From assembly GCF_964036635.1 (NCBI RefSeq), contig NZ_OZ038524.1, positions 322,001-386,000 of the forward strand: a stretch of DNA of 64,000 bases, given 5' to 3'. Positions within the stretch are counted from its first letter, which is position 1. Every line of letters starts with the position of its first letter. The notes beneath the pieces were generated by a model. That model searched no databases, was not told the DNA's origin, and saw only the letters and a list, made by a program, of their open reading frames with translations. Of the stretch, positions 44,151-58,127 are shown piece after piece. Source of the stretch: Tenacibaculum dicentrarchi (lineage in GTDB: Bacteria; Bacteroidota; Bacteroidia; Flavobacteriales; Flavobacteriaceae). A program made the translations under genes and the position numbers.

Positions 44151-45101
44151 TTAAAATATAATAAAAGGAAATGCTTTTTGAAGTGTTTCCTTTTTTTGTG
44201 CTATATTTTTTAAAAACTTCTGATGCGCTTCCGATGTTGGGTTAAAAGAACTATGTGCCAATCCTTTTTGAATTATTTCAACTTCTCTCATCGTTTTTTT
44301 GGTGTTTTCAGAAATCCAAACTTCTATGAATTTTTCCCAAATATAATTGATTGCTGTATTATTTGGATGAATCATATCTTCAGCATAAAAACGATAATCA
44401 CGTAATTCATCCATCATAATTTCATAAGAAGGAAAATAATAAGTGTTATTTTTAGCATCAATAATTTGATGAATTGCGCTTAATAAATGCGCTTTACTTT
44501 GTTGATTTTCAATAAAACCATCTTTTATGTGACGCACTGGCGAAACTGTGAAAATAATTGAAATATCAGGATTAACAGATTTTGTTAAAGCAATAATAGC
44601 ATCTAAACTTTCAGTAACTTCATCAATAGTTAAAATTTCTTTTAAAAAATTTTTCTGCGGAATTTTATGGCAATTCGCTACAATAGCATCCGAAGAAATT
44701 TTACGATAAACCCATGAAGTACCAAGTGTAATTATTAGATGACTCACATTTTTTAAATGCTCAAATGTTGCCGTATTTGCAGTGTTTAAATTATTTAAAA
44801 CTTCTTTTTTATCCGAAGAACTTAAACTAGAATGTGCATCAAAACAATGCCAAGATTCATTGTGTAAAAAAACAGCTTCTTCTGTGTGTTTTTTTTGATT
44901 AATAGCATCCGTAATTAATTTTTCAATAGCTTTTGGATGAAATAAAATTCCGAAAGGATTTTGTTCTGATTGAAATTTATAAAATGATAATTTATTTCCG
45001 ATGTTTTCAGAAAAACAAGAACCTAATAAAAGTAACTTTGAGTTGTAGTTAATTAAATGATGAGGTTGTTTTTTTAAAGGTATTTGTGTTTGAAGTTTCA
45101 T
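44151..45101 (-). CDS. GSCFA-domain protein
   Basis: 316 residues with LLLGSCFSENIGNKL near the N-terminus, the motif naming this Bacteroidetes family, plus GTSWVYR and PVRHIKDG blocks typical of SGNH-hydrolase-like proteins. The Ser in GSCFS and a late His/Asp (AEDMIHPNN) would form the catalytic set. Substrate unknown. Its 3' coding end contains a terminator for the opposite strand. Confidence 0.88.
   Translation of the reverse strand: MKLQTQIPLKKQPHHLINYNSKLLLLGSCFSENIGNKLSFYKFQSEQNPFGILFHPKAIEKLITDAINQKKHTEEAVFLHNESWHCFDAHSSLSSSDKKEVLNNLNTANTATFEHLKNVSHLIITLGTSWVYRKISSDAIVANCHKIPQKNFLKEILTIDEVTESLDAIIALTKSVNPDISIIFTVSPVRHIKDGFIENQQSKAHLLSAIHQIIDAKNNTYYFPSYEIMMDELRDYRFYAEDMIHPNNTAINYIWEKFIEVWISENTKKTMREVEIIQKGLAHSSFNPTSEAHQKFLKNIAQKKETLQKAFPFIIF
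44163..44197 (+). terminator. phhA-rhodanese terminator inside GSCFA coding end
   Basis: AAAAGGAAA / TTTCCTTTT stem then seven T; the hairpin starts 22 nt past the rhodanese stop and lies within the last codons of the convergent gene. Confidence 0.7.
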
Positions 45102-45181
45102 TTTATAAAAATAATGTGCTTCAAAAATAACTATAAAATGGTCAAATTAGTGAGAGTTTTTATTAAATTGAATGAAAAATG

Positions 45182-45189
45182 TATCTTTG
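45182..45189 (+). promoter_or_regulatory. -7 element and putative operator half-site of the photoreceptor gene
   Basis: TATCTTTG, 21 nt before the TTG start at 45211. It runs into TTTGTTTAAT (45186-45195), the same 9-mer (TTTGTTTAA) that occurs twice in the crtI promoter. Confidence 0.5.
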
Positions 45190-45210
45190 TTTAATAAAAA
45201 AGATAATAAA

Positions 45211-46104
45211 TTGAACAATATTAAAAAATCATTTACAATAAAAGACCTTGAAAATATTTCAGGAATTAAAGCACATACTATTCGTATTTGGGAAAAGCGA
45301 TATAATTTATTATCGCCAGAAAGAACAGATACTAATATTAGATATTACTCTTCAGAAAATTTATTGAAATTGTTAAATGTTGTTTTGTTAAATAAAAACA
45401 ATTACAAAATATCTAAAATTTCACAAATGTCTGATAAAGATATTTTGCTAGTAGCAAGAGAATTAGCTTTTAAAAATGCCATAAATGATGAAGCTATAAA
45501 CTCTTTAAAAATGGCAATGTTTCAGTTTGATAAAGTTTTATTTAATAATACTTATAATCAATTATTGAATAAAAAAACATTTAGAGGAATTTTTAAAGAT
45601 GTTTTTGTGCCTTTTTTAAATCATATCGGTTTATTGTGGCAAACAGATACATTGCTACATGCACACGAACATTTTATATCGAATTTAATAGCTCAAAAAA
45701 TTCAAATTAGCACTGAAAAATTGGAATATTCAATAATAGATTCAGATGTTATTTATGTGTTGTTTTTACCCGAAAATGAAGTTCATGAATTAGGATTGAT
45801 GTATTTAAATTATGAACTAGTTTTAAGAGGAAATAAAACCATATATTTAGGACAGAGTTTACCTTTAAGTAACTTGAATTATTTTTTTGAAAGTGATACC
45901 GAAGTTCGATTTATTACATCATTAACCGTTCAGCCTTATGATGATAAAATAATGGATTACTTTCAAGAAATAGAGATAGCTTTAAAAGGTAAAAAACATC
46001 AATTTATTGCTGTAGGTAATAAAACATCAAAAGTAAAAGAAGTTAATTTTGAAGCAAATATTTCTCTTTATAATTCTGTTATAGAACTTTTAAAAGTGTT
46101 GTAA
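45211..46104 (+). CDS. MerR-family cobalamin-dependent photoreceptor regulator (CarH/LitR-like)
   Basis: 297 residues: an N-terminal MerR HTH (FTIKDLENISGIKAHTIRIWEKRY), a helical cap domain, and a C-terminal B12-binding Rossmann domain. Signatures: W143 followed after exactly nine residues by E153-H154 (the W-x9-EH cap of CarH), and E190-x-H192-x-x-G195 (ENEVHELGL) for the lower cobalt ligand. In CarH/LitR, AdoCbl in the dark holds a DNA-bound tetramer that light breaks apart. The start TTG 45211 (LNNIKKSFTIK) is chosen since relatives begin MNNIK and a promoter box lies at 45182; an in-frame ATG at 45172 would lie upstream of that box. It precedes the carotenoid operon. Confidence 0.9.
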   Translation: MNNIKKSFTIKDLENISGIKAHTIRIWEKRYNLLSPERTDTNIRYYSSENLLKLLNVVLLNKNNYKISKISQMSDKDILLVARELAFKNAINDEAINSLKMAMFQFDKVLFNNTYNQLLNKKTFRGIFKDVFVPFLNHIGLLWQTDTLLHAHEHFISNLIAQKIQISTEKLEYSIIDSDVIYVLFLPENEVHELGLMYLNYELVLRGNKTIYLGQSLPLSNLNYFFESDTEVRFITSLTVQPYDDKIMDYFQEIEIALKGKKHQFIAVGNKTSKVKEVNFEANISLYNSVIELLKVL

Positions 46105-46121
46105 ATTTTTTTGATGTATTT

Positions 46122-46171
46122 TATTTTGTTTAATTATATCTTGTTTTTGTTAAACAAAAATTGTAGATTTG
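46122..46171 (+). promoter_or_regulatory. crt operon promoter with palindromic operator
   Basis: TTG at 46141-46143, 20 nt, TAGATTTG at 46164-46171. The spacer holds the perfect 17-bp palindrome TTTTTGTTAAACAAAAA (46144-46160), and a further TTTTGTTTAA lies at 46122-46131. This is where a repressor such as the upstream photoreceptor would bind. Confidence 0.65.
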
Positions 46172-46246: not shown

Positions 46247-47710
46247 TTGAAAAAAACAATACATATAATAGGGTCAGGTTTTTCATCATTATCAGCTTCT
46301 TGTTATTTAGCGAAAGCAGGATACGATGTTGTAATTTTAGAAAAAAATGAAACAGTAGGAGGTAGAGCTCGTCAATTAATAAAAGATGGATTTACTTTTG
46401 ATATTGGTCCAACATGGTATTGGATGCCCGATGTTTTTGAAAAATTTTTTGCAGATTTCGGTAAAAAACCTTCCGATTATTATGAATTAGAAAAGTTAGA
46501 CCCAGCATATCAAGTTTATTTTGATACCGCAGATTCTATAACAATACCAGGTAGCGTTCAAGAGATTTATGAAATTTTTGAAGCAGAAGAAAAAGGTAGT
46601 TCTGTTCATTTAAAAGCGTTTTTAAAATCGGCAGCCTATAATTATGATGTTTCTATAAACGATTTAGTATATAACCCAGGGGTTTCGCCTTTAGAATTGA
46701 TAACGCCTGTTACCATTGGAAAAATAACACAGTTTTTTTCATCAATAAGAAAAGAAGTCCGCAGAAAAATAAAAAGTAAAAAGTTAATTCAAATTTTAGA
46801 ATTTCCTGTTTTATTTTTAGGTGCAAAACCAAGTAATACTCCCGCTTTTTATAATTTTATGAATTATGCCGATTTTGTTTTAGGAACTTGGCATCCGAAA
46901 GGAGGAATGTATAAAGTTATTGAAGCAATGATAACGTTGGCTAAAGATTTAGGAGTAACTTTTAAAACTGAAGCAAATGTTGAAGAAATTAAACTTAATC
47001 AATTAGGTGAAGCTACTGGTTTAGTTGTGAATGGTGATTTTATTACTTCGGATATTATTTTAAGCGGTGCTGATTATCATCACACAGAAACATTATTACC
47101 TCAAAAATACAGACAGTATTCTGAAAAATATTGGGATAAAAAAGTTTTTGCACCTTCATCATTATTATTTTATGTTGGTTTTGATAAAAAATTAAAAAAT
47201 GTGTGTCATCATACCTTATTTTTTGATACCGATTTTGATACGCATGCAAAAACTATTTACGATACCCCAAGTTGGCCAAAAGACCCGATGTTTTACGCAA
47301 GTTTCCCTTCAATAACAGAAGGTTCTTTTGCGCCAATTAATAAAGAAGCTGCTACTTTTTTAATTCCCATAGCACCCGGTATTGAAGATACTCCAGAGCT
47401 TAGAGAAAAGTATTTTAATTTAATTATTAGTAGATTAGAGAAATTAACACAGCAATCTGTAAAAGAAAGTGTTATATTTAAAGAAAGTTTTTGTGTAAAG
47501 GATTTTGTGAAAGATTACAACTCGTATAAAGGTAATGCCTACGGATTAGCAAATATTTTAACACAAACAGCTTTTTTAAGACCAAAAATAAAAAGTAAAA
47601 AAGTAAAGAATTTATTTTTTACAGGACAATTAACGGTTCCAGGACCGGGGGTACCACCGTCATTAATTTCGGGTAAAATAGCTTCAGATTTAATTTTAAA
47701 ACACCATTAA
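46247..47710 (+). CDS. crtI: Phytoene desaturase
   Basis: FAD-dependent enzyme introducing four double bonds into phytoene to give lycopene. 487 residues; N-terminal dinucleotide-binding IIGSGFSSLSASCYLAKAGY and the C-terminal FAD motif PGPGVPPSLISGK typical of CrtI. The start codon is TTG (46247); no ATG is available close by and the family start matches. First gene of the 15-gene light operon; crtB follows after 2 bp. GGPP synthase is not in the window. Confidence 0.94.
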   Translation: MKKTIHIIGSGFSSLSASCYLAKAGYDVVILEKNETVGGRARQLIKDGFTFDIGPTWYWMPDVFEKFFADFGKKPSDYYELEKLDPAYQVYFDTADSITIPGSVQEIYEIFEAEEKGSSVHLKAFLKSAAYNYDVSINDLVYNPGVSPLELITPVTIGKITQFFSSIRKEVRRKIKSKKLIQILEFPVLFLGAKPSNTPAFYNFMNYADFVLGTWHPKGGMYKVIEAMITLAKDLGVTFKTEANVEEIKLNQLGEATGLVVNGDFITSDIILSGADYHHTETLLPQKYRQYSEKYWDKKVFAPSSLLFYVGFDKKLKNVCHHTLFFDTDFDTHAKTIYDTPSWPKDPMFYASFPSITEGSFAPINKEAATFLIPIAPGIEDTPELREKYFNLIISRLEKLTQQSVKESVIFKESFCVKDFVKDYNSYKGNAYGLANILTQTAFLRPKIKSKKVKNLFFTGQLTVPGPGVPPSLISGKIASDLILKHH

Positions 47711-47712
47711 AA

Positions 47713-48555
47713 ATGAAACAATTATTTGATGAGGTTTCTTACGATTGTAGTAAGTTAGTTACTCAAAAATACAGCACTTCTTTTTCTTTAGCCACTAGAA
47801 TGTTATCACCTAGCATACGTGCCGAAATTTATAATATTTATGGTTTTGTCCGTTTTGCAGATGAAATTGTAGATTCTTTTCATCAATATAATAAAGAAGA
47901 TTTATTAATCAGGTTTGAAAATGAGTATTATTTGTCAAAAAAAGCAGGTATTAGTTTAAACCCTATTTTAAATTCATTTGTACAAACTGTTGAAAAATAT
48001 AAAATTACTGATGATTTAATTCAAGCTTTTTTAAAAAGCATGAAAGCCGATTTACATCAAACTGAATATACAACAGAACAGCAGTATAAACAATATATTT
48101 ATGGCTCTGCCGATGTGGTAGGCTTAATGTGTTTACGAGTTTTTGTAAATGGAGATGAACAGAAATATCATCAATTAAAAGAACCCGCAATGCGTTTAGG
48201 GTCAGCTTTTCAAAAGGTTAATTTTTTAAGAGATTTAAAAGATGATTTTGAACTTTTGAATCGTTCTTATTTTCCGAATATCAATCTTAAAGAATTAAAT
48301 CAAACATCTAAAGAAATTATTATTAAAGATATTGAAGCTGATTTTGAGTATGCTTATCAAAATGGAATATTAAAATTACCTGTAGAAGCTAAATTTGGCG
48401 TTTATATGGCATATCGATATTATAAAAAATTATTAAAAAAGTTAAAAGCAACGCCATCATCAAAAATTATGGATACAAGAATTCGAGTTTCTGATGTTAT
48501 GAAAATTAATTTATTAGCAAGAAGTTACGTAAAATACAAACTAAATCTTATTTAA
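47713..48555 (+). CDS. crtB: Phytoene synthase
   Basis: Condenses two GGPP into phytoene. 280 residues; first Asp-rich motif FVRFADEIVD (residues about 45-54), second NFLRDLKDDF with the Mg-binding Asp residues. Membrane-peripheral enzyme. 2 bp on either side to crtI and crtZ. Confidence 0.95.
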   Translation: MKQLFDEVSYDCSKLVTQKYSTSFSLATRMLSPSIRAEIYNIYGFVRFADEIVDSFHQYNKEDLLIRFENEYYLSKKAGISLNPILNSFVQTVEKYKITDDLIQAFLKSMKADLHQTEYTTEQQYKQYIYGSADVVGLMCLRVFVNGDEQKYHQLKEPAMRLGSAFQKVNFLRDLKDDFELLNRSYFPNINLKELNQTSKEIIIKDIEADFEYAYQNGILKLPVEAKFGVYMAYRYYKKLLKKLKATPSSKIMDTRIRVSDVMKINLLARSYVKYKLNLI

Positions 48556-48557
48556 AA

Positions 48558-49004
48558 ATGCTATTTATACTTATAACATTACTCACTTTTGTAACTATGG
48601 AAGCTGTTACTTGGTGTACCCATAAATATATAATGCACGGTTTTGGATGGTATTTACATGAAGACCATCATCAACCTGGTTACCCGCACGTATTTGAAAA
48701 AAATGATGCTTTTTTTGTGGTTTTTGCTATACCGAGTATGTTGCTTTTTTACTTCGGATTTCATCCAGAATTAAATTATTTATTCTTTATAGGATTAGGA
48801 ATTTTATGCTACGGATTAGCCTATTTTTTAATTCACGATGTTTTAATTCACAGACGCTTCAATTGGTTTAAAAACACGAATAATCAATATTTAAAAGGAT
48901 TACGAAAGGCACATAAAATACATCACAAACATTTAGGAAAACCAGATGGTGAGTGTTTCGGAATGCTGTTTGTTCCGTTTAAATATTTCAAGAAAAGACA
49001 ATAA
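48558..49004 (+). CDS. crtZ: Beta-carotene hydroxylase
   Basis: 148-residue di-iron membrane enzyme adding 3-hydroxyl groups to beta-ionone rings, giving zeaxanthin. The histidine clusters are H22-x4-H27, H34-x-x-H37-H38 (HEDHH), then HDVLIHRR and HKIHHKH. Normal length for the flavobacterial type. Confidence 0.93.
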   Translation: MLFILITLLTFVTMEAVTWCTHKYIMHGFGWYLHEDHHQPGYPHVFEKNDAFFVVFAIPSMLLFYFGFHPELNYLFFIGLGILCYGLAYFLIHDVLIHRRFNWFKNTNNQYLKGLRKAHKIHHKHLGKPDGECFGMLFVPFKYFKKRQ

Positions 49005-49027: not shown

Positions 49028-49723
49028 ATGAGTGAGTACTTGTATCTGATATTAAATTTAGGAAGTTTAAGTATTCCTTTAGGTTATAGTATTTTTGAGA
49101 AGAAATTTCATTTTATACAGTACCTTAAAATTGCTCTAATCAGTATTTTGTTAGTAGCTTTTCCTTTTGTCATTTGGGATGTGTTTTTTACAAAAATGGG
49201 CATTTGGGGTTTTAATTCCGATTATTATTTAGGAATAAAATTACTTGAAATGCCTATTGAAGAATGGCTATTTTTCTTTTGTATTCCTTATGCTTGTTTG
49301 TTTACGCATGAGGTTTTAAAATATTTATATCCTCAATTTAAGTTATCTAAATCGATAACTGTTTTATTTAGTTTTTTATTGATTTTGATAGCATTTATAC
49401 TATTGATTTTCAATTTTGGAAAATGGTACACAACTGTAAATTTCAGTGCTTTTTTAGTATTAATGTTCTTCGGATTAAAAAATAACTTAAAAGCTTTACA
49501 GGAATATTATCCGAGTTTTTTGGTTGTTTTAGTTCCTTTTTTAGTAGTAAACGGAATTTTAACAGGAAGTTTTATTGATGCTCCTGTGGTTTGGTATAAC
49601 AATGCAGAAAATTTGAATTTTAGAATTTTTACAATTCCTTTTGAAGATGTTTTTTATGCTTTTACGTTATTGTTTTCAGTACAATTGATATTTAATTACT
49701 TTAAAAAAATATATAAAATTTAA
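49028..49723 (+). CDS. crtY: Lycopene cyclase, CrtYc/CrtYd fused type
   Basis: Cyclises lycopene to beta-carotene. 231 residues, about six to seven helices; two half-domains each with the PxE(E/D) motif: MPIEEWLFF (about residue 75-83) and IPFEDVFYAF (about residue 205-214). This is the heterodimeric-type cyclase fused in one chain, usual in Bacteroidetes and unlike the proteobacterial CrtY. Placed 23 bp after crtZ. Confidence 0.9.
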   Translation: MSEYLYLILNLGSLSIPLGYSIFEKKFHFIQYLKIALISILLVAFPFVIWDVFFTKMGIWGFNSDYYLGIKLLEMPIEEWLFFFCIPYACLFTHEVLKYLYPQFKLSKSITVLFSFLLILIAFILLIFNFGKWYTTVNFSAFLVLMFFGLKNNLKALQEYYPSFLVVLVPFLVVNGILTGSFIDAPVVWYNNAENLNFRIFTIPFEDVFYAFTLLFSVQLIFNYFKKIYKI

Positions 49724-49725
49724 AA

Positions 49726-50199
49726 ATGAAACAAAATAAATACATACGATTTTTACTGTTTTTAGTAGTTAATTTTTTAGCATTAGCAATTGGTGTTGTA
49801 TTGATGGAAGATGGTCCAAAAACAGATTGGTATTTATCATTAAATAAAGCACCTTGGACACCTGCAGGATGGGTTTTTGGAACAGCTTGGACTACAATTA
49901 TGTTGTTATTTGCTTTTTATATGACAAAATTGAGTTTTAATTTTCCTTTTTTAGATAAAAAACTGACAATACTTTTTAGTGTTCAGTGGATTTTAAACGT
50001 AGGTTGGAATTACTTTTTTTTCAATCAACATTTAACTCTTATCGGATTAGTAATTATTACTTTATTATGGTTGTTAATCGGTTATTTTACTTTTAAAAAT
50101 TTAAAAGAATTAAAAGGGATTACATTATTTATACTTCCATATTTAATATGGATGACTATTGCAACAAGTTTAAACGCCTACATCGTATTTTATAATTAA
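49726..50199 (+). CDS. tspO: TspO/MBR family protein
   Basis: 157 residues with five transmembrane helices and Trp-rich loops (WTPAGWVFGTAWTTIMLLF, WILNVGWNYFF). TspO proteins bind porphyrins and cholesterol-like lipids and are tied to oxidative and light stress, and to tetrapyrrole handling. Here it is embedded in the carotenoid operon, which fits a light-stress role. Only 2 bp from crtY. Confidence 0.92.
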   Translation: MKQNKYIRFLLFLVVNFLALAIGVVLMEDGPKTDWYLSLNKAPWTPAGWVFGTAWTTIMLLFAFYMTKLSFNFPFLDKKLTILFSVQWILNVGWNYFFFNQHLTLIGLVIITLLWLLIGYFTFKNLKELKGITLFILPYLIWMTIATSLNAYIVFYN

Positions 50200-50203
50200 A
50201 ATT

Positions 50204-50857
50204 ATGGGAAATCAAGAAATTATTACAGAAGATAAAATTATAGAATTGTACATGGACACGGTTTTAATTTCAGGAAAACCAGCCTCTATTTACGCTTTTG
50301 CTCAAAAAAATGAGTTTGAAGAGTCTGAATTTTACAAATATTTTTCAAGTTTTGAAAATTTAGAAAAATCAATATTTGGAGTTTTTGCAAAAGAAACAAT
50401 TCATTTGTTACATAAAACAGAAGCGTATAAAGATTATACATCAAAAGATAAATTATTAAGTTTTTATTTTACTTTTTTTGAATTATTAACAGCAAACAGG
50501 TCGTATGTTTTATTACAATTTCAGCATATAAAATCAGATTTTTCAAAACTATCAGTTTTAAAAGAATTACGTTCAGAATTTCTAAAGTATGTTAGTAACA
50601 TTGAATTAGAAAAAATTGATTTTAAGAATGAAAAAATCAATAAAATTCAAGATAAAACAATAACAGAAACCTATTGGGTACAGTTATTAATGATTCTGAA
50701 ATTTTGGATTGATGATGAATCTTCAAACTTCGAAAAAACCGATGTTTTTATTGAGAAATCAATCAAAGCTGCTTTTGATATTCAGCAAATAACTCCCGTA
50801 AAAAGCGTTATTGATTTAGCGAAATTTTTATGGAAAGAAAAAGGAACTTCAGTATGA
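50204..50857 (+). CDS. TetR-family regulator in the crt operon
   Basis: 217 residues. The N-terminus (DKIIELYMDTVLISGKPASIYAFAQKNEFEESEFYKYF) fits a TetR HTH, with an all-helical ligand-binding remainder. It overlaps the following kinase gene by 4 bp (ATGA), so the pair is translationally coupled. Ligand and target unknown; it may set a second control layer on the operon. Weak HTH compared with canonical TetR, so moderate confidence. Confidence 0.75.
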   Translation: MGNQEIITEDKIIELYMDTVLISGKPASIYAFAQKNEFEESEFYKYFSSFENLEKSIFGVFAKETIHLLHKTEAYKDYTSKDKLLSFYFTFFELLTANRSYVLLQFQHIKSDFSKLSVLKELRSEFLKYVSNIELEKIDFKNEKINKIQDKTITETYWVQLLMILKFWIDDESSNFEKTDVFIEKSIKAAFDIQQITPVKSVIDLAKFLWKEKGTSV

Positions 50858-52164
50858 AAAGATTAGATAAAATACCGACATCAAAAATAGAAAGAACAAC
50901 TAAATTAGTAACAACAGGACTAAAATTAGGTGTAAACTATGCAAAGTATTACGGAAATAAAATCACAAAATCGGAAGAAGAAGCAAGAGAGCAATTAAAT
51001 GAAGACAATGCAACCGATATTTATGACGGTTTAAAAGAATTAAAAGGTTCGGCATTAAAAGTAGCCCAAATGCTAAGCATGGAAAAAAATTTACTGCCAA
51101 ATGCTTATGTTGAAAAATTCTCGTTATCACAATTTTCTGTTCCGCCACTTTCAGGACCTTTAGTCGTTAAAACTTTTAAAAAATATTTCAACAAAACACC
51201 TGAAGATGTTTTTGATACGTTTACAGCAGAATCTGTAAATGCAGCAAGTATCGGGCAGGTTCACAGAGCTACGATAGGCGAAAAAGTATTGGCTGTTAAA
51301 ATTCAATATCCAGGTGTTGCTAATAGTATTTCTACGGATTTAGCATTGGTAAAACCGATTGCGATGAAAATGTTCAACATAAGAGGCGAAGGTTCTGATG
51401 AATATTTTAAAGAAGTTGAAAATAAATTATTAGAAGAAACAAATTACGTTTTGGAATTAGCACAGAGTAACGAAATAGCGAATGCTTGTGCACATATTCC
51501 AAATTTAAAATTCCCGAAATATTATGAAGAATATTCTACGGATAGAATTTTAACAATGGACTGGATGGATGGAATTCATTTGTCGCAATTTACATCAAAA
51601 GGATATGATGAACAAACGGCAAATAAATTAGGACAAGCTTTATGGGATTTTTATATGTATCAAATGCATACTATAAAAAAAGTTCATGCCGACCCGCATC
51701 CAGGTAATTTTTTAGTATCCAAAGAAAACGATTTAATTGTTATCGATTTTGGATGTATGAAAGAAGTGCCAATGGCTTTTTATACGCCATATTTCGAGTT
51801 AGCTAAACGAGAAAATATTGAAAATCCTGCTTTTTTTGAAAGTAAATTATATGAATTAGAAATTTTAAGAAAAGATGATTCCGAAGAAGAAAAAGTCTTT
51901 TTTAAAGAATTGTTTTATGAAATGTTGTATTTATTTACATCACCTTTTCAGCAAGAATCTTTTGATTTTTCTGATGGTGTTTTCTTTGGTAAAATAGCCG
52001 ATTTAGGACAAAAATATGCAAAAAGTACTGAGCTTAAAAAAATGAACGGTAACAGAGGTTCAAAACATTTTATTTATATCAATAGAACATTTTTTGGTTT
52101 GTATAATTTAATGCATGATTTAAAATCGACTCATATAAAAATTAATAATTATAAGAATTTATAA
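50854..52164 (+). CDS. ABC1/AarF/UbiB-family atypical kinase
   Basis: 436 residues from ATG 50854. Family signatures: KGSALKVAQMLS (the KxGQ-like segment, with Ala instead of Gly), ASIGQVHRA (Ala-rich nucleotide loop), VHADPHPGNF (catalytic Asp) and VIDFGC (metal Asp). UbiB/COQ8 homologues support ubiquinone biosynthesis, but flavobacteria use menaquinone, so here the partner is likely another isoprenoid pathway, possibly the carotenoid one. It overlaps tetR upstream by 4 bp and abuts the next gene. Confidence 0.9.
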   Translation: MKRLDKIPTSKIERTTKLVTTGLKLGVNYAKYYGNKITKSEEEAREQLNEDNATDIYDGLKELKGSALKVAQMLSMEKNLLPNAYVEKFSLSQFSVPPLSGPLVVKTFKKYFNKTPEDVFDTFTAESVNAASIGQVHRATIGEKVLAVKIQYPGVANSISTDLALVKPIAMKMFNIRGEGSDEYFKEVENKLLEETNYVLELAQSNEIANACAHIPNLKFPKYYEEYSTDRILTMDWMDGIHLSQFTSKGYDEQTANKLGQALWDFYMYQMHTIKKVHADPHPGNFLVSKENDLIVIDFGCMKEVPMAFYTPYFELAKRENIENPAFFESKLYELEILRKDDSEEEKVFFKELFYEMLYLFTSPFQQESFDFSDGVFFGKIADLGQKYAKSTELKKMNGNRGSKHFIYINRTFFGLYNLMHDLKSTHIKINNYKNL

Positions 52165-52776
52165 ATGCATTTATCAAGAAAAGCTATAGATGATATGAAT
52201 CATCTGTATAAAATAAATTTAATGAACAGTATTTCTGGTTATAAACCAGCAAATTTAATTGCTACAAAATCGGAAGATGGGATTAGTAATGTAGCTGTTT
52301 TTAGTTCAGTAGTTCATTATGGTTCTAGTCCTGCAATTTTAGGATTCGTTTTGCGTCCTACAACCGTAGCTAGAAATACCTATGATAACATTAAAAAAAC
52401 TGGTTTTTATACTATAAATGCTATTAATGAAGTAATTATTGAAGATGCTCATCATACATCAGCAAAGTATCCGTCAGGAGTTTCGGAGTTTGATAAAACC
52501 GATTTAACTGAAATTTATAAAGATGATTTTTTTGCACCTTATGTAGCACAATCACCTATAAAAATAGGAATGAAATTTTTAGAAGAACATCATATAAAAG
52601 CAAACGGAACTATTTTAATTTTAGGTGAAGTAACCGATTTATATTTTAAAGAATCAATGCTTTCTGAGGATGGTTTTTTAAATTTATCCGAAGAAAAAAT
52701 TGCATCAATTAATGGTTTAGATACGTATATGGTTGCAAAAGAATATAAAAGATTATCATATCAAAGACCAAAGTAA
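52165..52776 (+). CDS. Flavin reductase family protein
   Basis: 203 residues of the flavin reductase/FMN-binding split-barrel fold: ISNVAVFSSVVHYGSSPAILGFVLRP and NTYDNIKKTGFYTINAI are the FMN-contacting parts. It may supply reduced flavin or act as an oxidoreductase for the neighbouring SDRs. Starts directly after the kinase stop codon. Confidence 0.85.
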   Translation: MHLSRKAIDDMNHLYKINLMNSISGYKPANLIATKSEDGISNVAVFSSVVHYGSSPAILGFVLRPTTVARNTYDNIKKTGFYTINAINEVIIEDAHHTSAKYPSGVSEFDKTDLTEIYKDDFFAPYVAQSPIKIGMKFLEEHHIKANGTILILGEVTDLYFKESMLSEDGFLNLSEEKIASINGLDTYMVAKEYKRLSYQRPK

Positions 52777-52808: not shown

Positions 52809-54239
52809 ATGAAGATTTTAATCACAGGAACAACAGGGTATATAGCAAAAAGATTGGTATTGAAATTATTAGATGCTGGTCATGAATTAATATGTTGTGT
52901 ACGTGATTTAAAACGAATTCCTGATGAAATAGAATACAAAGACAATATTTCATTTATAAAAGTTGATTTTTTACAAACCGAACAAATTATTTTTCCTTCG
53001 GATATTGATGTTGCGTATTATTTAATTCATTCAATGGCTACGGATGACAATAATTTTGAAGATTTAGAGCAAACTTGTGCTAAGAATTTTAAAAATATTG
53101 TTGAAAAAACAAACTGTAAGCAAGTCATTTATTTAAGTGGTATTGTAAACGATAGTTCTTTGTCTAAACATTTAGCTTCTCGTTTTCAGGTAGAGCAAAA
53201 TTTACAGTCTTTAAAATATAATGTAACAACTTTTAGAGCAGGAATTATTGTTGGTAGTGGTAGTGCATCCTTTGAAATTATTAGAGATATTGTTGAAAAG
53301 TTACCTGTAATGGTTACGCCAAAATGGTTGAATACAAAATCGCAACCAATTGCAATTAGAGATGTATTAACTTTTTTAGAACGTGCCGTTGGAAATGAAA
53401 AATTGTATAATAAATCGTTTGATATTTGTGGTACAGAAGTACTTACTTATAAAGAAATGCTTTTACAATTTGGAGAGGTAAGAGGCTTTAAGCGTTACAT
53501 TTTAACATTACCACTTTTAACGCCAAAATTATCATCGTATTGGTTATACTTTGTAACTTCTACGTCTTTTAATTTAGCACAAGCTTTGGTCGATAGTATG
53601 AAAGTTGAGGTAATTGCCAAGCCAAGTAATATCAATCAACTTTTAAATATATCGCCTATTTGTTATAAAGATGCAGTAAACTTAGCTTTTCAAAGAATAG
53701 AACAAAACGCTGTAATATCAAGTTGGAAAGATGCGATTAGTAGCGGTGTTTTTCAAGCGCAATTATCGGATTATATTCAAATACCACAATACGGTTGTTT
53801 TGTAGATAAACGTACTATAAAAGTTTCTGATGATGCTTTTACACTTGATAAAATCTGGTCGATTGGAGGAAAAAATGGTTGGTATAGTTTTAATTGGTTA
53901 TGGAAAATAAGAGGTTATGCTGATAAAATTTTTGGAGGAGTTGGTTTGCGTAGAGGAAGAACACACGATACATCATTAGAAGCTGGTGACCCGCTAGATT
54001 TTTGGCGTGTTTTATTAGCTGATAAAAAAGAAAAAAGACTTTTGTTATTTGCAGAAATGAAATTACCTGGCGAAGCTTGGTTAGAATTCAAAATAGTAAA
54101 TGACACTTTACATCAAAAAGCAGTTTTCAGACCTAAAGGAGTTTTAGGGCGTCTGTATTGGTATTCCGTTTTACCATTTCATGCTTTTGTATTTAAAGGA
54201 ATGATAAACGCTTTGGTAAAAAATAATCAAAAATTATGA
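52809..54239 (+). CDS. NAD(P)-binding SDR with DUF2867 C-terminus
   Basis: 476 residues: N-terminal Rossmann (ILITGTTGYIAKRLVLKLL), conserved FRAGIIVGSGSASFEII, and a C-terminal DUF2867-like region (about residues 310-475) ending in KGVLGRLYWYSVLPFHAFVF. The atypical-SDR half resembles NAD(P)H-sensing and epimerase-like proteins. Function unknown; same context in photolyase clusters of other bacteria, from memory. Confidence 0.85.
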   Translation: MKILITGTTGYIAKRLVLKLLDAGHELICCVRDLKRIPDEIEYKDNISFIKVDFLQTEQIIFPSDIDVAYYLIHSMATDDNNFEDLEQTCAKNFKNIVEKTNCKQVIYLSGIVNDSSLSKHLASRFQVEQNLQSLKYNVTTFRAGIIVGSGSASFEIIRDIVEKLPVMVTPKWLNTKSQPIAIRDVLTFLERAVGNEKLYNKSFDICGTEVLTYKEMLLQFGEVRGFKRYILTLPLLTPKLSSYWLYFVTSTSFNLAQALVDSMKVEVIAKPSNINQLLNISPICYKDAVNLAFQRIEQNAVISSWKDAISSGVFQAQLSDYIQIPQYGCFVDKRTIKVSDDAFTLDKIWSIGGKNGWYSFNWLWKIRGYADKIFGGVGLRRGRTHDTSLEAGDPLDFWRVLLADKKEKRLLLFAEMKLPGEAWLEFKIVNDTLHQKAVFRPKGVLGRLYWYSVLPFHAFVFKGMINALVKNNQKL

Positions 54240-54502
54240 ATCACAGAGATATAGATAGAATAATAGAAATGGCTTGGGAAGATAGAACCACATTTGATGC
54301 TATACAGTTTCAGTTTGGTTTAAAAGAACAACAAGTAATTGAATTAATGCGCAAAGAATTAAAACTGTCTAGTTTTAAATTATGGAGAGCAAGAGTTCAA
54401 GGTCGTTCAACCAAACATCAAGCAAAACGAATTTTCGAAAAAGGACGATTTAAATGTTCAAGACAAAAAAGCATTAGTAATAATAAAGTTTCTAAGAGAT
54501 AA
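54236..54502 (+). CDS. TIGR03643 family protein
   Basis: 88 residues, small and basic: DIDRIIEMAWEDRTTFDAI, then LKEQQVIELMRKEL and FKLWRARVQGR, matching the TIGR03643 family, usually found next to photolyase/cryptochrome genes in light-responsive clusters. It overlaps the preceding gene by 4 bp. Could be a small nucleic-acid or protein adaptor; unknown. Confidence 0.9.
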   Translation: MNHRDIDRIIEMAWEDRTTFDAIQFQFGLKEQQVIELMRKELKLSSFKLWRARVQGRSTKHQAKRIFEKGRFKCSRQKSISNNKVSKR

Positions 54503-54538: not shown

Positions 54539-55216
54539 ATGAAAACAATTGTAATAGTAGGAGGTAGCTCGGGTATCGGAAAAGCTATCGTAAATAAATT
54601 AAAAGATACACATGAAATTATCAATATAAGTAGAACAGCACCTGAAGAGCATGAAAATGTAACGCATTATTCATGCGATGTTTTAAATGATGAACTACCA
54701 GTTTTAGAAGATATTAATGGATTGGTTTACTGCCCAGGAAGTATCAATTTAAAATCATTTACGCGACTTAAAGTTGCCGATTTTAAAACTGATTTTGAAA
54801 TTAATGTTGTAGGCGCAATCAATACTTTAAAAGCATACGAAACTAGTTTGGCAAAAAACAACGGAAGTGTTGTATTATTTAGTACAGTTGCTTCTACTTT
54901 AGGAATGCCATTTCATGCAAGTATTGCAACAAGTAAATCGGCAGTTGAAGGTTTAACAAAATCGTTAGCGGCAGAGTATGCAACTAAAATTCGTTTTAAT
55001 GCCATTGCTCCAACTGTAACAGATACGCCACTTGCAAAACGTTTGTTAAGAAATGAAAAACAGCAAGAGAGTATGCAAGACAGGCATCCGCTAAAAAAAT
55101 ATTTAACGCCACAAGAAGTAGCAGGTTTGGCTAGTTATTTATTATCAGAGGATGCAAGTTCAATAACAGGACAAATTATTCCTATGGATGCAGGAATTGT
55201 AAGTGTAAAATTATAA
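54539..55216 (+). CDS. Atypical SDR lacking the catalytic tyrosine
   Basis: 225 residues with an intact NAD(P)-binding VGGSSGIGKAIV and catalytic-like Ser in FSTVAST, but the YxxxK position reads HASIATSK, with Ile in place of Tyr. It probably binds cofactor without normal dehydrogenase chemistry, or uses a different proton donor. Downstream NAIAPTVTDTPLAKRLL is standard. Part of the light operon (36 bp after TIGR03643, 10 bp before CIA30). Confidence 0.88.
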   Translation: MKTIVIVGGSSGIGKAIVNKLKDTHEIINISRTAPEEHENVTHYSCDVLNDELPVLEDINGLVYCPGSINLKSFTRLKVADFKTDFEINVVGAINTLKAYETSLAKNNGSVVLFSTVASTLGMPFHASIATSKSAVEGLTKSLAAEYATKIRFNAIAPTVTDTPLAKRLLRNEKQQESMQDRHPLKKYLTPQEVAGLASYLLSEDASSITGQIIPMDAGIVSVKL

Positions 55217-55226
55217 TTGTACTCGA

Positions 55227-55751
55227 ATGAAATGGCTAATTTTATTCACTATTTTTTTATGTATGAATGATGAGGTAATAATTTTTGATAAAAATACAAC
55301 ACCCCAAAATTGGATTATCACAAATGATGATGTTATGGGAGGTGTATCAACATCTTCTATGAAATTGAATACAGATAAACAACTTGTTTTTTCGGGACAA
55401 GTTTCTTTAGATAATAATGGCGGTTTTGCAATGGCTCGTTTACCTATCGCTATTAATTTTGATGATAAAAAAACAAATCTAGTTATAAAGTTAAAAGGCG
55501 ATGATAAAAAGTATCAGTTTAGAATAAAAGCAAAAGAAAATCAGCGTTTTTGGTACGTTCAACCGTTTAAAACGACCAATAAATCAGAAGAAATTATTTT
55601 GCCTTTACATAAATTTTATGCTTCGTCTAGAGGTAATTTAGTTGATGTGCCAAATTATTCAGCAACTACCATTTCAGAAATTGCAATTCTGATAGGTAAC
55701 AAAAAGAACGAAAATTTTAATATATCCATAGAAAAAATAACACTTCAATAA
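55227..55751 (+). CDS. CIA30-family protein
   Basis: 174 residues with a hydrophobic start (MKWLILFTIFLCMN) and a beta-sandwich pattern (WIITNDDVMGGVSTSSM and GGFAMARL) of the complex I intermediate-associated protein 30/CBM11-like family. Likely membrane-anchored or secreted. Function here unknown. It abuts the glutathione peroxidase gene with no gap. Confidence 0.82.
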   Translation: MKWLILFTIFLCMNDEVIIFDKNTTPQNWIITNDDVMGGVSTSSMKLNTDKQLVFSGQVSLDNNGGFAMARLPIAINFDDKKTNLVIKLKGDDKKYQFRIKAKENQRFWYVQPFKTTNKSEEIILPLHKFYASSRGNLVDVPNYSATTISEIAILIGNKKNENFNISIEKITLQ

Positions 55752-56318
55752 ATGAAAACACTTAAAATAACTTTACTTATAACTTTATCAATACTAGTAA
55801 TTATGGCATTATTTAGTTTTTTATCAAATTCAGAAACAGTATCTCCTAATCAATCTTTATATGACATAGAAATTAAAGGAATTGATGGAGAAAAATTAGA
55901 TTTAAATCAATATAAAGGTAAAAAAATATTATTTGTAAATGTTGCCTCTAAATGCGGGTTTACCAAGCAATATGATGGATTACAAGAATTATATTCAAAA
56001 TATAATGATAAATTAGTAATCATCGGTTTACCGTGTAATCAATTTGGAGAACAAGAACCTGGTGAAGCATCAGAAATAAAATCGTTTTGTAAGTTAAATT
56101 TTGGAGTCGATTTTCCATTAACCGAAAAAATAGCCGTTAAAGGAGCTGATAAACATCCATTATATCAATGGTTAACTGAAAAAGAAAAAAATGCTAAAAT
56201 GGATTCATCAGTAAAATGGAATTTTCAAAAATATTTAGTTGATGAAGAAGGAAGGTTAATTGATGTTTTCTATTCAATTACAAAACCAATGAGTTCTAAA
56301 ATAACAAGTCTTTTGTAA
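55752..56318 (+). CDS. Glutathione peroxidase family protein
   Basis: 188 residues with an N-terminal membrane anchor and the redox-active Cys68 in NVASKCGFT, plus GLPCNQFGEQEPG and WNFQKYLV. This is a thioredoxin-fold peroxidase (probably thioredoxin- rather than glutathione-dependent in Bacteroidetes) that would remove lipid hydroperoxides made under light. It starts directly after the CIA30 stop. Confidence 0.9.
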   Translation: MKTLKITLLITLSILVIMALFSFLSNSETVSPNQSLYDIEIKGIDGEKLDLNQYKGKKILFVNVASKCGFTKQYDGLQELYSKYNDKLVIIGLPCNQFGEQEPGEASEIKSFCKLNFGVDFPLTEKIAVKGADKHPLYQWLTEKEKNAKMDSSVKWNFQKYLVDEEGRLIDVFYSITKPMSSKITSLL

Positions 56319-56804
56319 ATGATGAATTTTAAAAAACACTCAGGAATTTATACGCTAGAAACAGCACAGGAATTAAAAATGCCGTTAGCAAAAGCGTGGG
56401 ATTATTTTTCATCACCAGAAAATTTGGCTAATATTACTCCAAAATCAATGGGTTTTAATATAACCTCAAAAGTTGATAAAAAAGCATATCCTGGGCAAAT
56501 AATAACGTATAAAGTATCGCCTGTTCCGTTTGTGAAAACAAATTGGGTAACAGAAATAACGCAAGTAAAAGAACAAGCTTTTTTTATTGATGAGCAACGT
56601 TTTGGACCTTATGCAATGTGGCATCACGAACATTTTTTTGAAGCTTTGCCAAACGGAAATACCTTAATGAAAGATAAAATATCGTATAAAATACCGTTAG
56701 GTTTTTTAGGACATATAGCACAAGCTCTTTTTATCAAAAAACAATTAAAAAGTATTTTCGAATATCGATTTGTAACTTTAAAAAAAATGTTTAATGACAA
56801 ATAA
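56319..56804 (+). CDS. SRPBCC (START-like) ligand-binding protein
   Basis: 161 residues: AKAWDYFSSPENLANITPKSMGF and YAMWHHEHFFEALPNG are typical of the SRPBCC hydrophobic-pocket fold found beside photolyase genes. It may bind a lipid or isoprenoid. The start could be ATG 56319 or the next codon (MM). Overlaps the photolyase gene by 11 bp. Confidence 0.85.
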   Translation: MMNFKKHSGIYTLETAQELKMPLAKAWDYFSSPENLANITPKSMGFNITSKVDKKAYPGQIITYKVSPVPFVKTNWVTEITQVKEQAFFIDEQRFGPYAMWHHEHFFEALPNGNTLMKDKISYKIPLGFLGHIAQALFIKKQLKSIFEYRFVTLKKMFNDK

Positions 56805-58080
56805 ATTAGCGATATTTTGGTTTCGTAGAGATTTGCGCTTAGAAGATAACGTAGCATTATTTAACGCTTTAAATTCATCAAATAAAGTAGTTCCTTTATT
56901 TATTTTTGATGAAGATATTTTAGATAAATTGCCAGAAAATGATGCCCGAGTTTCATTTATTTATCAAACATTACAGCAATTAGATACTGATTTAAAAAAT
57001 GCAGGTTCATCTTTATTGATAAAAAAAGGAAATCCGCTAGAAGTTTGGAAAACAATAATTTCAGAATTTGATATTTCGGCAGTTTATACCAATAAAGATT
57101 ACGAACCGTATGCTTTACAAAGAGATGCAGAAATTCATGATTTTTTAAAATCAAAAAGTATTGATTTTTTAAGCTATAAAGACCAAGTTATTTTTGAAAA
57201 AGCTGAGGTTACTAAAAATGACGGATTGCCATATACGGTTTACACGCCCTATAAAAATAAGTGGTTACAGAAATTTAATGCCGAAGAAGATTTAAAAAAT
57301 TATGAAATAAATTTTAATAATTTTCATCAATTTACATCAAAAACACCTCCTTTAAAATCCATAGGATTTAATGAAAGTAGTATAAAAGTAACCCCTTATA
57401 ATTTATCAAATTTAGCGAATTACGATGAAGTTCGAGATTTCCCTTTTGCTGATAAAACATCTTATTTGTCGCCTTATTTTCGATTTGGCTTGGTAAGTGT
57501 TCGTAAAATGGTGCAATTTGCTTTAAAAACCAATGCGACTTTTTTAAATGAACTAATTTGGCGAGAATTTTTTATGCAAGTATTATTTCATTTTCCGAAA
57601 GTGGTTACAAATAATTTTAAGCAAAAATACGATGCTGTTCCGTGGAGAAATAACGAAGCCGAATTTGAAAAATGGTGTAAAGGTGAAACTGGGTATCCGA
57701 TGGTTGATGCAGGTATGCGACAGTTAAATAAAACGGGCTATATGCACAACAGAGTACGTATGATTACGGCAGGTTTTTTATGCAAACATTTGTTAATTGA
57801 TTGGCGTTGGGGCGAAGCTTATTTTGCCGAAAAACTATTAGATTATGAATTATCAGCAAATAATGGAAATTGGCAATGGTCAGCAGGAACGGGTTGTGAT
57901 GCTGCGCCATATTTTAGAGTTTTTAATCCTGAAGCACAATTAAAAAAGTTCGATAAAGATTTACAATATATTAGAAAATGGATTGAAAATTTTGATGAAT
58001 TAACCTATCCACAGCCAATGGTTGAACATAAGTTTGCCCGAGAAAGAGCAATTTCGACTTATAAAGAAGCGTTAAATTAA
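56794..58080 (+). CDS. phr: DNA photolyase / cryptochrome (class I)
   Basis: 428 residues: N-terminal antenna domain (IFWFRRDLRLEDNVALF) and C-terminal FAD domain (WREFFMQVLFHFP, GYPMVDAGMRQLNKTGYMHNRVRM, and WRWGEAYFAEKLLDYELSANNGNWQW). Repairs UV-induced cyclobutane pyrimidine dimers using blue light. Trp residues of the electron-transfer chain are in place. Last gene of the operon; terminator follows after 9 nt. Confidence 0.95.
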   Translation: MTNKLAIFWFRRDLRLEDNVALFNALNSSNKVVPLFIFDEDILDKLPENDARVSFIYQTLQQLDTDLKNAGSSLLIKKGNPLEVWKTIISEFDISAVYTNKDYEPYALQRDAEIHDFLKSKSIDFLSYKDQVIFEKAEVTKNDGLPYTVYTPYKNKWLQKFNAEEDLKNYEINFNNFHQFTSKTPPLKSIGFNESSIKVTPYNLSNLANYDEVRDFPFADKTSYLSPYFRFGLVSVRKMVQFALKTNATFLNELIWREFFMQVLFHFPKVVTNNFKQKYDAVPWRNNEAEFEKWCKGETGYPMVDAGMRQLNKTGYMHNRVRMITAGFLCKHLLIDWRWGEAYFAEKLLDYELSANNGNWQWSAGTGCDAAPYFRVFNPEAQLKKFDKDLQYIRKWIENFDELTYPQPMVEHKFARERAISTYKEALN

Positions 58081-58087
58081 TTGCAAA

Positions 58088-58127
58088 ATAAAAAGGTTCA
58101 AAGAATTAAATCTTTGAACCTTTTTGA
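58088..58127. terminator. Terminator of the light operon
   Basis: AAAAAGGTTCAAAGA-ATTAAA-TCTTTGAACCTTTTT, 15 perfect base pairs; lies between convergent phr and alaS. Confidence 0.92.

What the first reader, a model, noticed from the sequence alone, without database searches (positions are those of the whole stretch)
45182..46171. B12/light photoreceptor regulator in front of the carotenoid-photolyase operon
The MerR protein has both the W-x9-EH cap and an E-x-H-x-x-G cobalamin-binding motif, a combination typical of AdoCbl photoreceptors CarH/LitR. It is directly upstream of crt genes and a photolyase. Experimentally studied CarH-type regulators come mainly from Myxococcus, Thermus, Bacillus and Streptomyces; a flavobacterial example coupled to a 15-gene operon would be a useful extension.
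Basis: partly seen in the sequence, partly recalled or inferred. Interest (0 to 1): 0.75.

Follow-up and report, generated by a model that had tools for sequence, protein, structure and literature searches.

The report
Flavobacterial B12-type light switch, conserved operator
A regulator gene resembling the vitamin-B12-based light sensor CarH sits before a fish-associated marine bacterium's carotenoid and DNA-repair genes, and a DNA motif found at its own promoter also stands before the carotenoid, rhodopsin and retinal-making genes of many related bacteria, suggesting one light switch for several of their sunlight genes.

Summary
The gene is real: a MerR-type regulator, best read as 45211-46104 (TTG start, 297 aa), in a Tenacibaculum dicentrarchi-like genome, before a 15-gene operon from crtI to a photolyase. 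It keeps the CarH adenosyl cap (GxxW-x9-EH) and the ExHxxG cobalamin motif, together in 93 of 95 distinct relatives. It departs from Thermus CarH: Gln replaces the light-state ligand His132, the Arg-Asp salt bridge is gone, and Pfam's Rossmann B12 profile does not hit. The genome encodes adenosyltransferases and B12 enzymes.

New here: a 32-bp inverted repeat, TTGTTTAA-N16-TTRAACAA, lies at the regulator's own promoter, its right arm on the start codon, and at the crtI promoter. Its half-sites contain the published CarH core TnnACA, but as an inverted pair, not tandem 11-bp repeats. It recurs (<=3 mismatches) in 88 of 95 regulator promoters, 33 of 40 regulator-crtI gaps of 40-300 bp, 20 of 27 rhodopsin and 16 of 30 TetR_C_23 upstream regions. 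A strict version occurs in 48 of 56 genomes with the main-clade regulator and 1 of 16 without one.

Most likely: an AdoCbl-dependent dark repressor of a flavobacterial light regulon. Light response, B12 binding and DNA binding are untested.

The parts
45211..46104 (+). CarH-like MerR regulator gene, TTG start, 297 aa (longest ATG frame starts at 45172)
   Evidence: many relatives start at MNN(I/V)K; MerR_1, MerR and B12-binding_2 domains
45637..45672 (+). W143-x9-E153-H154 adenosyl-cap motif (WQTDTLLHAHEH); Gln144 at the place of Thermus CarH His132
45778..45795 (+). E190-x-H192-x-x-G195 lower-ligand cobalamin motif (EVHELG)
   Evidence: E190, H192 and G195 invariant in 41 of 41 rows of A2
45182..45189 (+). 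TATCTTTG, Bacteroidetes-type -7 box (TAnnTTTG; consensus recalled) of the regulator gene
   Evidence: a TAnnTTTG box at this place in 85 of 90 regulator promoters that had been kept because they carry the repeat
45187..45218 (+). Operator 1: TTGTTTAA-N16-TTGAACAA; right arm overlaps the TTG start codon
   Evidence: codon bias at Asn2
46126..46157 (+). Operator 2: TTGTTTAA-N16-TTAAACAA upstream of crtI (10-bp perfect arms at 46124-46159)
46164..46171 (+). TAGATTTG, -7-like box of the crtI operon
46247..47710 (+). crtI, phytoene desaturase (NCBIfam names it a bifunctional phytoene desaturase/3,4-desaturase)
   Evidence: NF058655 731 bits, cut-off 640
47713..48555 (+). crtB, phytoene synthase
   Evidence: SQS_PSY E 1e-41
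48558..49004 (+). crtZ-like carotene hydroxylase (name by position and recalled similarity; no family match)
   Evidence: no family; usually kept next to crtB
49028..49723 (+). lycopene cyclase (two CarR-type domains)
49726..50199 (+). TspO/MBR family protein
50204..50857 (+). TetR_C_23 (COQ9-like) protein
   Evidence: in other genomes its upstream region often carries the operator
50830..52164 (+). ABC1 atypical kinase
52165..52776 (+). flavin reductase-like protein
52809..54239 (+). NAD(P)-binding protein with DUF2867
54236..54502 (+). DUF2805 protein
54539..55216 (+). short-chain dehydrogenase
55227..55751 (+). CIA30-domain protein
55752..56318 (+). glutathione peroxidase
56319..56804 (+). 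SRPBCC-like protein (name recalled; no Pfam hit)
56794..58080 (+). photolyase/cryptochrome family protein
   Evidence: (NCBIfam photolyase models match below their cut-offs)
58089..58126 (+). 16-pair stem-loop, terminator-like, at the end of the operon
   Evidence: longest stem of 7 found (4.5 expected by chance)

Best explanation
The protein is a flavobacterial clade of the CarH/LitR superfamily that most likely works as an adenosylcobalamin-dependent dark repressor. In the dark, AdoCbl is held between His192 below and the Trp143/Glu153-His154 cap above, and the protein binds the inverted repeat TTGTTTAA-N16-TTRAACAA. One copy covers its own start region and start codon (autoregulation); the other lies at the crtI promoter upstream of the 15-gene carotenoid-photolyase operon. 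Light breaks the Co-C bond, the protein leaves the DNA and the operon is transcribed. Because the residue after the Trp is Gln rather than His, the light state should be water-ligated rather than bis-His. In other Flavobacteriaceae the same element also stands before fasciclin, TetR_C_23 and proteorhodopsin/blh genes, so the regulator probably governs a light regulon that T. dicentrarchi has gathered into one operon. Shown by sequence: gene, motifs, synteny, B12 enzymes, operator conservation and its co-occurrence with the regulator. Inferred: that this protein binds the element, that it binds AdoCbl, that it represses, and that light relieves it.
For: Motifs: GxxW-x9-EH plus ExHxxG in 93 of 95 distinct loci; W143, E153, E190, H192 and G195 invariant in 41 of 41 rows. 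Closest solved homologue is Thermus CarH. CarH is the top NCBIfam match of the window protein and is matched by 41 of 41 members, the window protein below the cut-off. B12 genes in the same genome: methylmalonyl-CoA mutase, MetH, an IcmF-like start (cut by the locus), two PduO adenosyltransferases, CobB, CobW, a BtuB-like receptor (below cut-off, cut by the locus) next to one of three cobalamin riboswitches. Synteny: regulator followed by crtI on the same strand in 95 of 95 distinct loci from L035-L134. Operator: only two N16 sites among 7 inverted repeats with spacers 10-20 in the 2.8-Mb genome, both at this locus; 0 in 100 shuffles of the window; 88 of 95 unique regulator promoters and 33 of 40 unique regulator-crtI gaps of 40-300 bp at <=3 mismatches of 16, against 1.2 and 0.8 in mononucleotide shuffles. 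DNA-level constraint: Asn2 is AAC in 87 of 89 genes, AAC is 705 of 2205 elsewhere and 22 of 79 at Asn3. Half-sites contain the published CarH core TnnACA (PMC9304148, passages), with variation at the nn positions. Strict operator in 48 of 56 genomes with the main-clade regulator, 1 of 8 with only a distant one, 1 of 16 without; sites away from the locus 31 of 48 against 1 of 16, Fisher p 8e-5.
Against: No binding or light data for this clade appeared in my literature searches. PF02310 does not hit any of 41 members; the second half of the cobalamin motif is weak (VG instead of GG; SxT in this protein but not conserved in the clade). Gln at the His132 position: H132A Thermus CarH largely stays tetrameric in light (PMC10442372, passages), although a photocobilin with Gln there is photoresponsive (PMC11796333, passages). 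The layout is not the tandem 11-bp repeat of known CarH operators. The spacer scan at regulator promoters has further peaks at 25 and 26 (54 and 64 of 95) and at crtI gaps at 17 (24 of 40), which I take for overlapping registers but did not resolve. The genome association is not corrected for phylogeny, genome size or AT content; at rhodopsin genes alone it is not significant (17 of 21 against 3 of 6, p 0.29), and 7 of 27 rhodopsin and 14 of 30 TetR_C_23 upstream regions lack the repeat. Chryseobacterium lacus induces crt genes by light while its authors found no car/lit genes (PMC7064467, passages), so a relative can do this without CarH.
Confidence: 0.66

Rival explanations
1. The clade has lost B12 sensing and works through a partner or another signal, as CarA and class II LitR do; the His and Trp motifs are structural relics. 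It still represses crt through the inverted repeat.
For: PF02310 absent, weak SxT/GG part and Gln for His132; class II LitR without B12 exists and takes a LOV partner (PMC9758184, passages).
Against: Class II LitR retains only the helical bundle (PMC9758184, passages), while here the ligand His, its E and G, and the W and E of the cap are invariant in 41 of 41 rows, the cap H in all but one. CarA lost the Trp of the cap (PMC9304148, passages), which is kept here.
Confidence: 0.2
2. The protein binds AdoCbl but reports B12 status rather than light, or acts as an activator.
For: The genome has several B12-dependent enzymes and three cobalamin riboswitches; MerR proteins are often activators (general knowledge).
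Against: Neighbours and shared promoters include light and photo-oxidation genes; the right arm of operator 1 covers the start codon, which suits repression.
Confidence: 0.1
3. The inverted repeat belongs to a different regulator, and the MerR protein merely lies within its regulon.
For: Only correlation links protein and element; one genome (G079) has sites but no regulator found, and 8 of 56 genomes with the regulator have no strict site.
Against: Element at the regulator's own start in 88 of 95 promoters, presence of the CarH core, co-occurrence 48 of 56 against 1 of 16. G079 is 81% complete in about 610 contigs.
Confidence: 0.12

Closest known systems
CarH of Thermus thermophilus (class I LitR; 5C8D, 3WHP)
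   Same: MerR head, helical bundle with GxxW-x9-EH cap, ExHxxG ligand motif; CarH controls carotenoid genes
   Different: Gln for His132, no Arg176-Asp201 pair (Val191/Ser216 here), diverged Rossmann C-terminal part; inverted pair of half-sites instead of tandem 11-bp direct repeats
CarH/CarA of Myxococcus xanthus
   Same: MerR plus B12-type domains, crt control; the crt operator contains an inverted repeat and TnnACA cores (PMC9304148, passages)
   Different: CarA lacks the cap Trp; no start-codon overlap in the passages I read; here the element also stands at rhodopsin promoters
Class II LitR (PplR/PmlR2) of Pseudomonas
   Same: Involved in light-induced photolyase and other genes (PMC9758184, passages)
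   Different: Retains only the helical bundle; PmlR2 takes a LOV partner (PMC9758184, passages)
'MerR' gene named with the crt genes in flavobacterial genome papers (Sediminicola YIK13, Flavobacterium TH167, Nonlabens spongiae)
   Same: Probably the same gene, by position
   Different: The passages I read name a MerR regulator only: no B12 domain, operator or mechanism (PMC4732338, PMC5887021, PMC11855829)

Membership tests
CarH (class I LitR) | MerR winged-helix head with recognition helix RxWERRY | tested here: met
   RIWEKRY, invariant in A2; MerR_1 E 8e-15; Lys for one Arg
CarH (class I LitR) | Four-helix B12-binding_2 bundle with Wx9EH cap | tested here: met
   PF02607 in 41 of 41; cap in 93 of 95 distinct loci; L056 and L057 read HER instead of HEH
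CarH (class I LitR) | D/ExHx2G lower-ligand motif | tested here: met
   95 of 95 distinct loci
CarH (class I LitR) | SxT/V and GG parts of the cobalamin motif; PF02310 domain | tested here: not met
   SxT present in this protein but only in part of the clade; VG for GG; no PF02310 hit
CarH (class I LitR) | His132 for the bis-His light state | tested here: not met
   Gln in 89 and His in 4 of the 93 distinct loci with both motifs; the position also varies in proven photoreceptors (PMC11796333, passages)
CarH (class I LitR) | Arg-Asp pair of the head-to-tail dimer | tested here: not met
   Val191/Ser216 in the alignment; residue numbers counted from His177, Asp201 recalled
CarH (class I LitR) | NCBIfam CarH equivalog cut-off | tested here: not met
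   70 bits, cut-off 400
CarH (class I LitR) | Operator of tandem 11-bp repeats nnnnTnnACAn | tested here: not met
   TnnACA core present, but as an inverted pair with N16 spacer
CarH (class I LitR) | AdoCbl binding, oligomer change and loss of DNA binding in light | not testable with these tools
CarH (class I LitR) | Phylogenetic place among LitR classes I-V | not tested
   no tree with the named reference proteins was built
Class II LitR | Rossmann B12 domain absent | tested here: not met
   ligand motif and a C-terminal part are present

The most novel reading that the evidence does not exclude
A B12-based CarH-type photoreceptor is the common dark repressor of flavobacterial photobiology: it controls its own gene, carotenoid synthesis, photolyase-type repair, fasciclin genes, and, where present, proteorhodopsin and its retinal-making enzyme blh, through one inverted-repeat operator.
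Probability: 0.5. Interest if true: 0.82.

Novelty: new variant of a known kind. Interest (0 to 1): 0.64.

Why it matters
My searches (listings, the latter showing 25 of 42 papers) showed no regulator tied to the rhodopsin genes of marine flavobacteria, although rhodopsin transcripts rise in light in one of them (Nonlabens YIK11, PMC4831467, passages). A defined operator and a named candidate trans-factor make this directly testable by gel shift and by a single gene deletion. If right, it would tie flavobacterial rhodopsin expression to vitamin B12 and extend the B12 photoreceptors to a clade mostly lacking the ligand for a bis-His light state.

Tried and rejected
MliR of Bizionia (PMC9478572: outline and abstract, first tenth of the text, passages) was checked as a possible orthologue and rejected: 109 aa, no effector domain. 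The 10-bp inverted repeat in the window's crtI gap is weak alone (10 of 300 dinucleotide shuffles as good); conservation is what carries it. The motif TANNTTTGTTNAA alone is no more frequent in the window than chance. Chryseobacterium lacus was considered as indirect support and rejected: its authors report no car or lit genes. Rhodopsin in the window's own genome: no match, and the control genomes were silent; the same search found matches in 30 of 149 family genomes (29 over the cut-off), not in this one. Blh upstream counts are not independent of rhodopsin counts, since the two genes lie side by side and are read apart in most of these genomes.

Limits of the counts. One search counted 100 loci with five duplicates; one search repeats it on 95 distinct genes, and those numbers are used. 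Start codons and gene starts are my script's choice. The half-site and box counts come from promoters kept because they carry the repeat at <=4 mismatches, so they are partly circular. Shuffles keep single-base composition only. The 278 control windows (at least 72% AT) were not matched in AT to the rhodopsin regions. Dropped before counts: loci with regulator-crtI gaps under 40 bp (48) or over 300 bp (7) from the 40 gaps; rhodopsin loci L252, L253 (fragment; below cut-off) and L250 (no frame resolved) from the 27; dioxygenase loci L282, L283 (below cut-off) from the 28; 32 of 62 TetR_C_23 genomes not fetched; 8 genomes with unlisted sites from the 48. In one search genome classes, counts and local/non-local labels were copied by hand; G023 and G035 (weak MerR-head matches) were counted as without the regulator; 'distant' means a best E-value weaker than 1e-60.

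Full report
WHAT IS THERE. The window holds a MerR-type regulator directly upstream of crtI. The longest ATG frame is 45172-46104 (310 aa). Many relatives start at MNN(I/V)K, and the matching codon here is TTG at 45211, so the protein is most likely 297 aa; among 95 distinct fetched relatives the start codons, as chosen by my script, are 60 ATG, 32 TTG and 3 GTG. Residues below use the 297-aa numbering. Downstream, 15 genes on the same strand with gaps of at most 36 bp run from crtI (46247) to a photolyase-family gene (ends 58080), followed by a 16-pair stem-loop. The regulator is identical over 310 aa to that of Tenacibaculum dicentrarchi TDCHD05 (L035), a fish-associated species (recalled).

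THE PROTEIN. Pfam finds MerR_1 and B12-binding_2 but not the Rossmann B12-binding domain PF02310, in the window protein and in the 41 members of alignment A2. The best solved homologue is Thermus CarH, E about 2e-12. The cap motif is G140-x-x-W143-x9-E153-H154; the ligand motif is E190-x-H192-x-x-G195. Both occur together in 93 of 95 distinct loci; the two exceptions (L056, L057) read HER for HEH. Of the published photoreceptor signatures GxxW, EH, GxxH and GxxxP (PMC11796333, passages) three are met; GxxH reads NxxH. Differences from Thermus CarH: His132 is Gln144 (Gln in 89 of 93, His in 4); the Arg before the ligand His is Val191 and its Asp partner is Ser216 (alignment; Asp201 recalled); the GG end of the cobalamin motif is VG. 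In Thermus CarH the H132A protein largely stays tetrameric in light (PMC10442372, passages), but a photocobilin with Gln at that place and CtMerR with Arg are photoresponsive. So AdoCbl binding is likely, and the light state is probably water-ligated. No structure model could be made.

B12. The same genome encodes methylmalonyl-CoA mutase, MetH, two PduO-type adenosyltransferases, CobB and CobW above at least one family cut-off each, an IcmF-like start and a BtuB-like receptor that are cut by their loci and below cut-off, and three cobalamin riboswitches, one just before the BtuB-like gene. Whether B12 is made or imported was not resolved; making the adenosyl form from it is covered.

NEIGHBOURHOOD. 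In 95 of 95 distinct loci from L035-L134 the regulator is followed by crtI on the same strand, usually with crtB and crtZ. Parts of the longer set (tspO, TetR_C_23, ABC1 kinase, SRPBCC, photolyase) follow in Tenacibaculum, Algibacter, Tamlana and some Polaribacter and Flavobacterium loci; many loci are cut before the window's photolyase position. A more distant group (L136-L144, 33-41% identical) has crtI in the opposite orientation in 6 of 9. 122 of 149 family genomes and 103 of 196 order genomes have a match, some only to the MerR head.

THE OPERATOR. TTGTTTAA-N16-TTGAACAA lies at 45187-45218, overlapping the TATCTTTG box, its right arm on the start codon; TTGTTTAA-N16-TTAAACAA lies at 46126-46157, just upstream of the TAGATTTG box of crtI. 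A whole-genome scan with spacers 10-20 found 7 places; only these two have N16. Across relatives, N16 with at most 3 mismatches of 16 is found in 88 of 95 unique regulator promoters and 33 of 40 unique regulator-crtI gaps of 40-300 bp, against 1.2 and 0.8 in shuffles. N16 is the highest spacer in both sets, but not the only raised one: 64 and 54 of 95 at spacers 26 and 25 in regulator promoters, 24 of 40 at 17 in crtI gaps. In 90 regulator promoters kept because they carry the repeat, the left core TGTnnA is present in 86, the right core TnnACA in 85, a TAnnTTTG box at one fixed place in 85, and the repeat begins 24 bp before the start codon in 86; in 38 crtI gaps the cores are present in 33 and 31. 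That the right arm is constrained as DNA follows from codon use: the second codon (Asn) is AAC in 87 of 89 genes, while AAC is 705 of 2205 elsewhere and 22 of 79 at the third codon. TnnACA is the published core of CarH operators, there arranged as tandem 11-bp direct repeats (PMC9304148, passages); here it is an inverted pair, and the arms vary mainly at the nn positions. The match to the core is suggestive, not decisive, as the core is short. Seven distinct loci have a long insert between regulator and crtI. In two (L037, L050) it encodes a fasciclin protein by Pfam; six of the seven were scanned (not L115), and each has two copies of the N16 repeat within 3 mismatches: 91-92 bp apart in five, 139 bp in L050.

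A WIDER SET OF PROMOTERS. A strict form of the repeat was sought in 80 family genomes: 84 forward and 93 reverse matches, against 2 and 3 for the reversed control. From that list, which was capped, I chose 20 stretches, mostly with a TAnnTTTG box in the repeat (14 of 20), and scanned the adjacent genes of 19: seven fasciclin, four GLPGLI-type (Porph_ging), one rhodopsin, one beta-carotene dioxygenase (blh), one TetR_C_23, one TetR_N, one desaturase-like, one GHMP kinase followed by UbiA, one protein with a secretion-sorting tail, one carboxypeptidase-regulatory-domain protein. This was a chosen sample; the targeted tests that follow are not. Within 220 bp upstream: rhodopsin 20 of 27 loci at <=3 mismatches (15 at <=2, 8 perfect; 0.3 in shuffles), blh 16 of 28 (largely the same intergenic stretch), TetR_C_23 16 of 30 fetched of 62 genomes with a match among 100 searched (all 16 at <=2; 1.1 in shuffles); N16 is the highest spacer of 8-25 in each set. 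In 278 AT-rich control windows of the same length the rate was 18 at <=3 and 3 at <=2 mismatches. In the window the TetR_C_23 and ABC1 genes are inside the crt operon, which fits one regulon gathered into one transcript.

LINK TO THE REGULATOR. The strict repeat occurs in 48 of 56 genomes with the main-clade regulator, 1 of 8 with only a distant one and 1 of 16 without it (Fisher 6e-9 for the first against the last). Leaving out sites at the regulator-crtI locus: 31 of 48 against 1 of 16 (p 8e-5; 8 genomes with unlisted sites dropped) (inputs copied by hand). The one exception without a regulator, G079, is 81% complete in about 610 contigs. At rhodopsin genes alone the association is not significant: 17 of 21 against 3 of 6, p 0.29. 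None of this corrects for phylogeny, genome size or base composition.

LITERATURE. Ten searches of the held library (listings, some capped) showed me no paper that studies a CarH-like regulator in flavobacteria. Three papers name a 'MerR' gene with their crt genes; the passages I read go no further. In Nonlabens YIK11 three rhodopsin genes rise in light (PMC4831467, passages). Chryseobacterium lacus induces crt genes by light although its authors found no car/lit genes (PMC7064467, passages). Subscription papers are mostly missing and preprints are not held, so a statement of novelty is limited to this library.

VERDICT. It works like CarH with probability about two in three; by defining features it is a variant clade rather than CarH proper. 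The operator and its spread are well supported by sequence; the trans-acting step, B12 binding and light response are inferred.

Noticed in passing
L037:10952-11074, L040:10938-11060, L041:10895-11017, L042:10944-11066, L043:10895-11018: Two copies of the N16 inverted repeat 91-92 bp apart between the regulator and the inserted gene before crtI (insert is a fasciclin gene by Pfam in L037), suggesting two bound complexes.
   Followed up: partly
L206, L210, L212, L216: GLPGLI-type (Porph_ging) genes of unknown function next to strict operator copies in four genomes.
   Followed up: no
L136-L144: Distant regulators (33-41% identical), 6 of 9 with crtI in the opposite orientation; several upstream regions show TTAGACA, another TnnACA form, instead of TTAAACA (by eye).
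   Followed up: partly
G079 (L218, L243): Genome with operator copies at rhodopsin/blh but no regulator found; 81% complete in about 610 contigs.
   Followed up: no
L056 and L057: Two Polaribacter MAGs whose regulator reads HER instead of HEH in the adenosyl cap.
   Followed up: no
window 44151-45101: GSCFA-like gene (name recalled) on the opposite strand, divergent from the regulator; kept with the PAH and rhodanese genes (names recalled) next to it in several Tenacibaculum and Algibacter loci.
   Followed up: no
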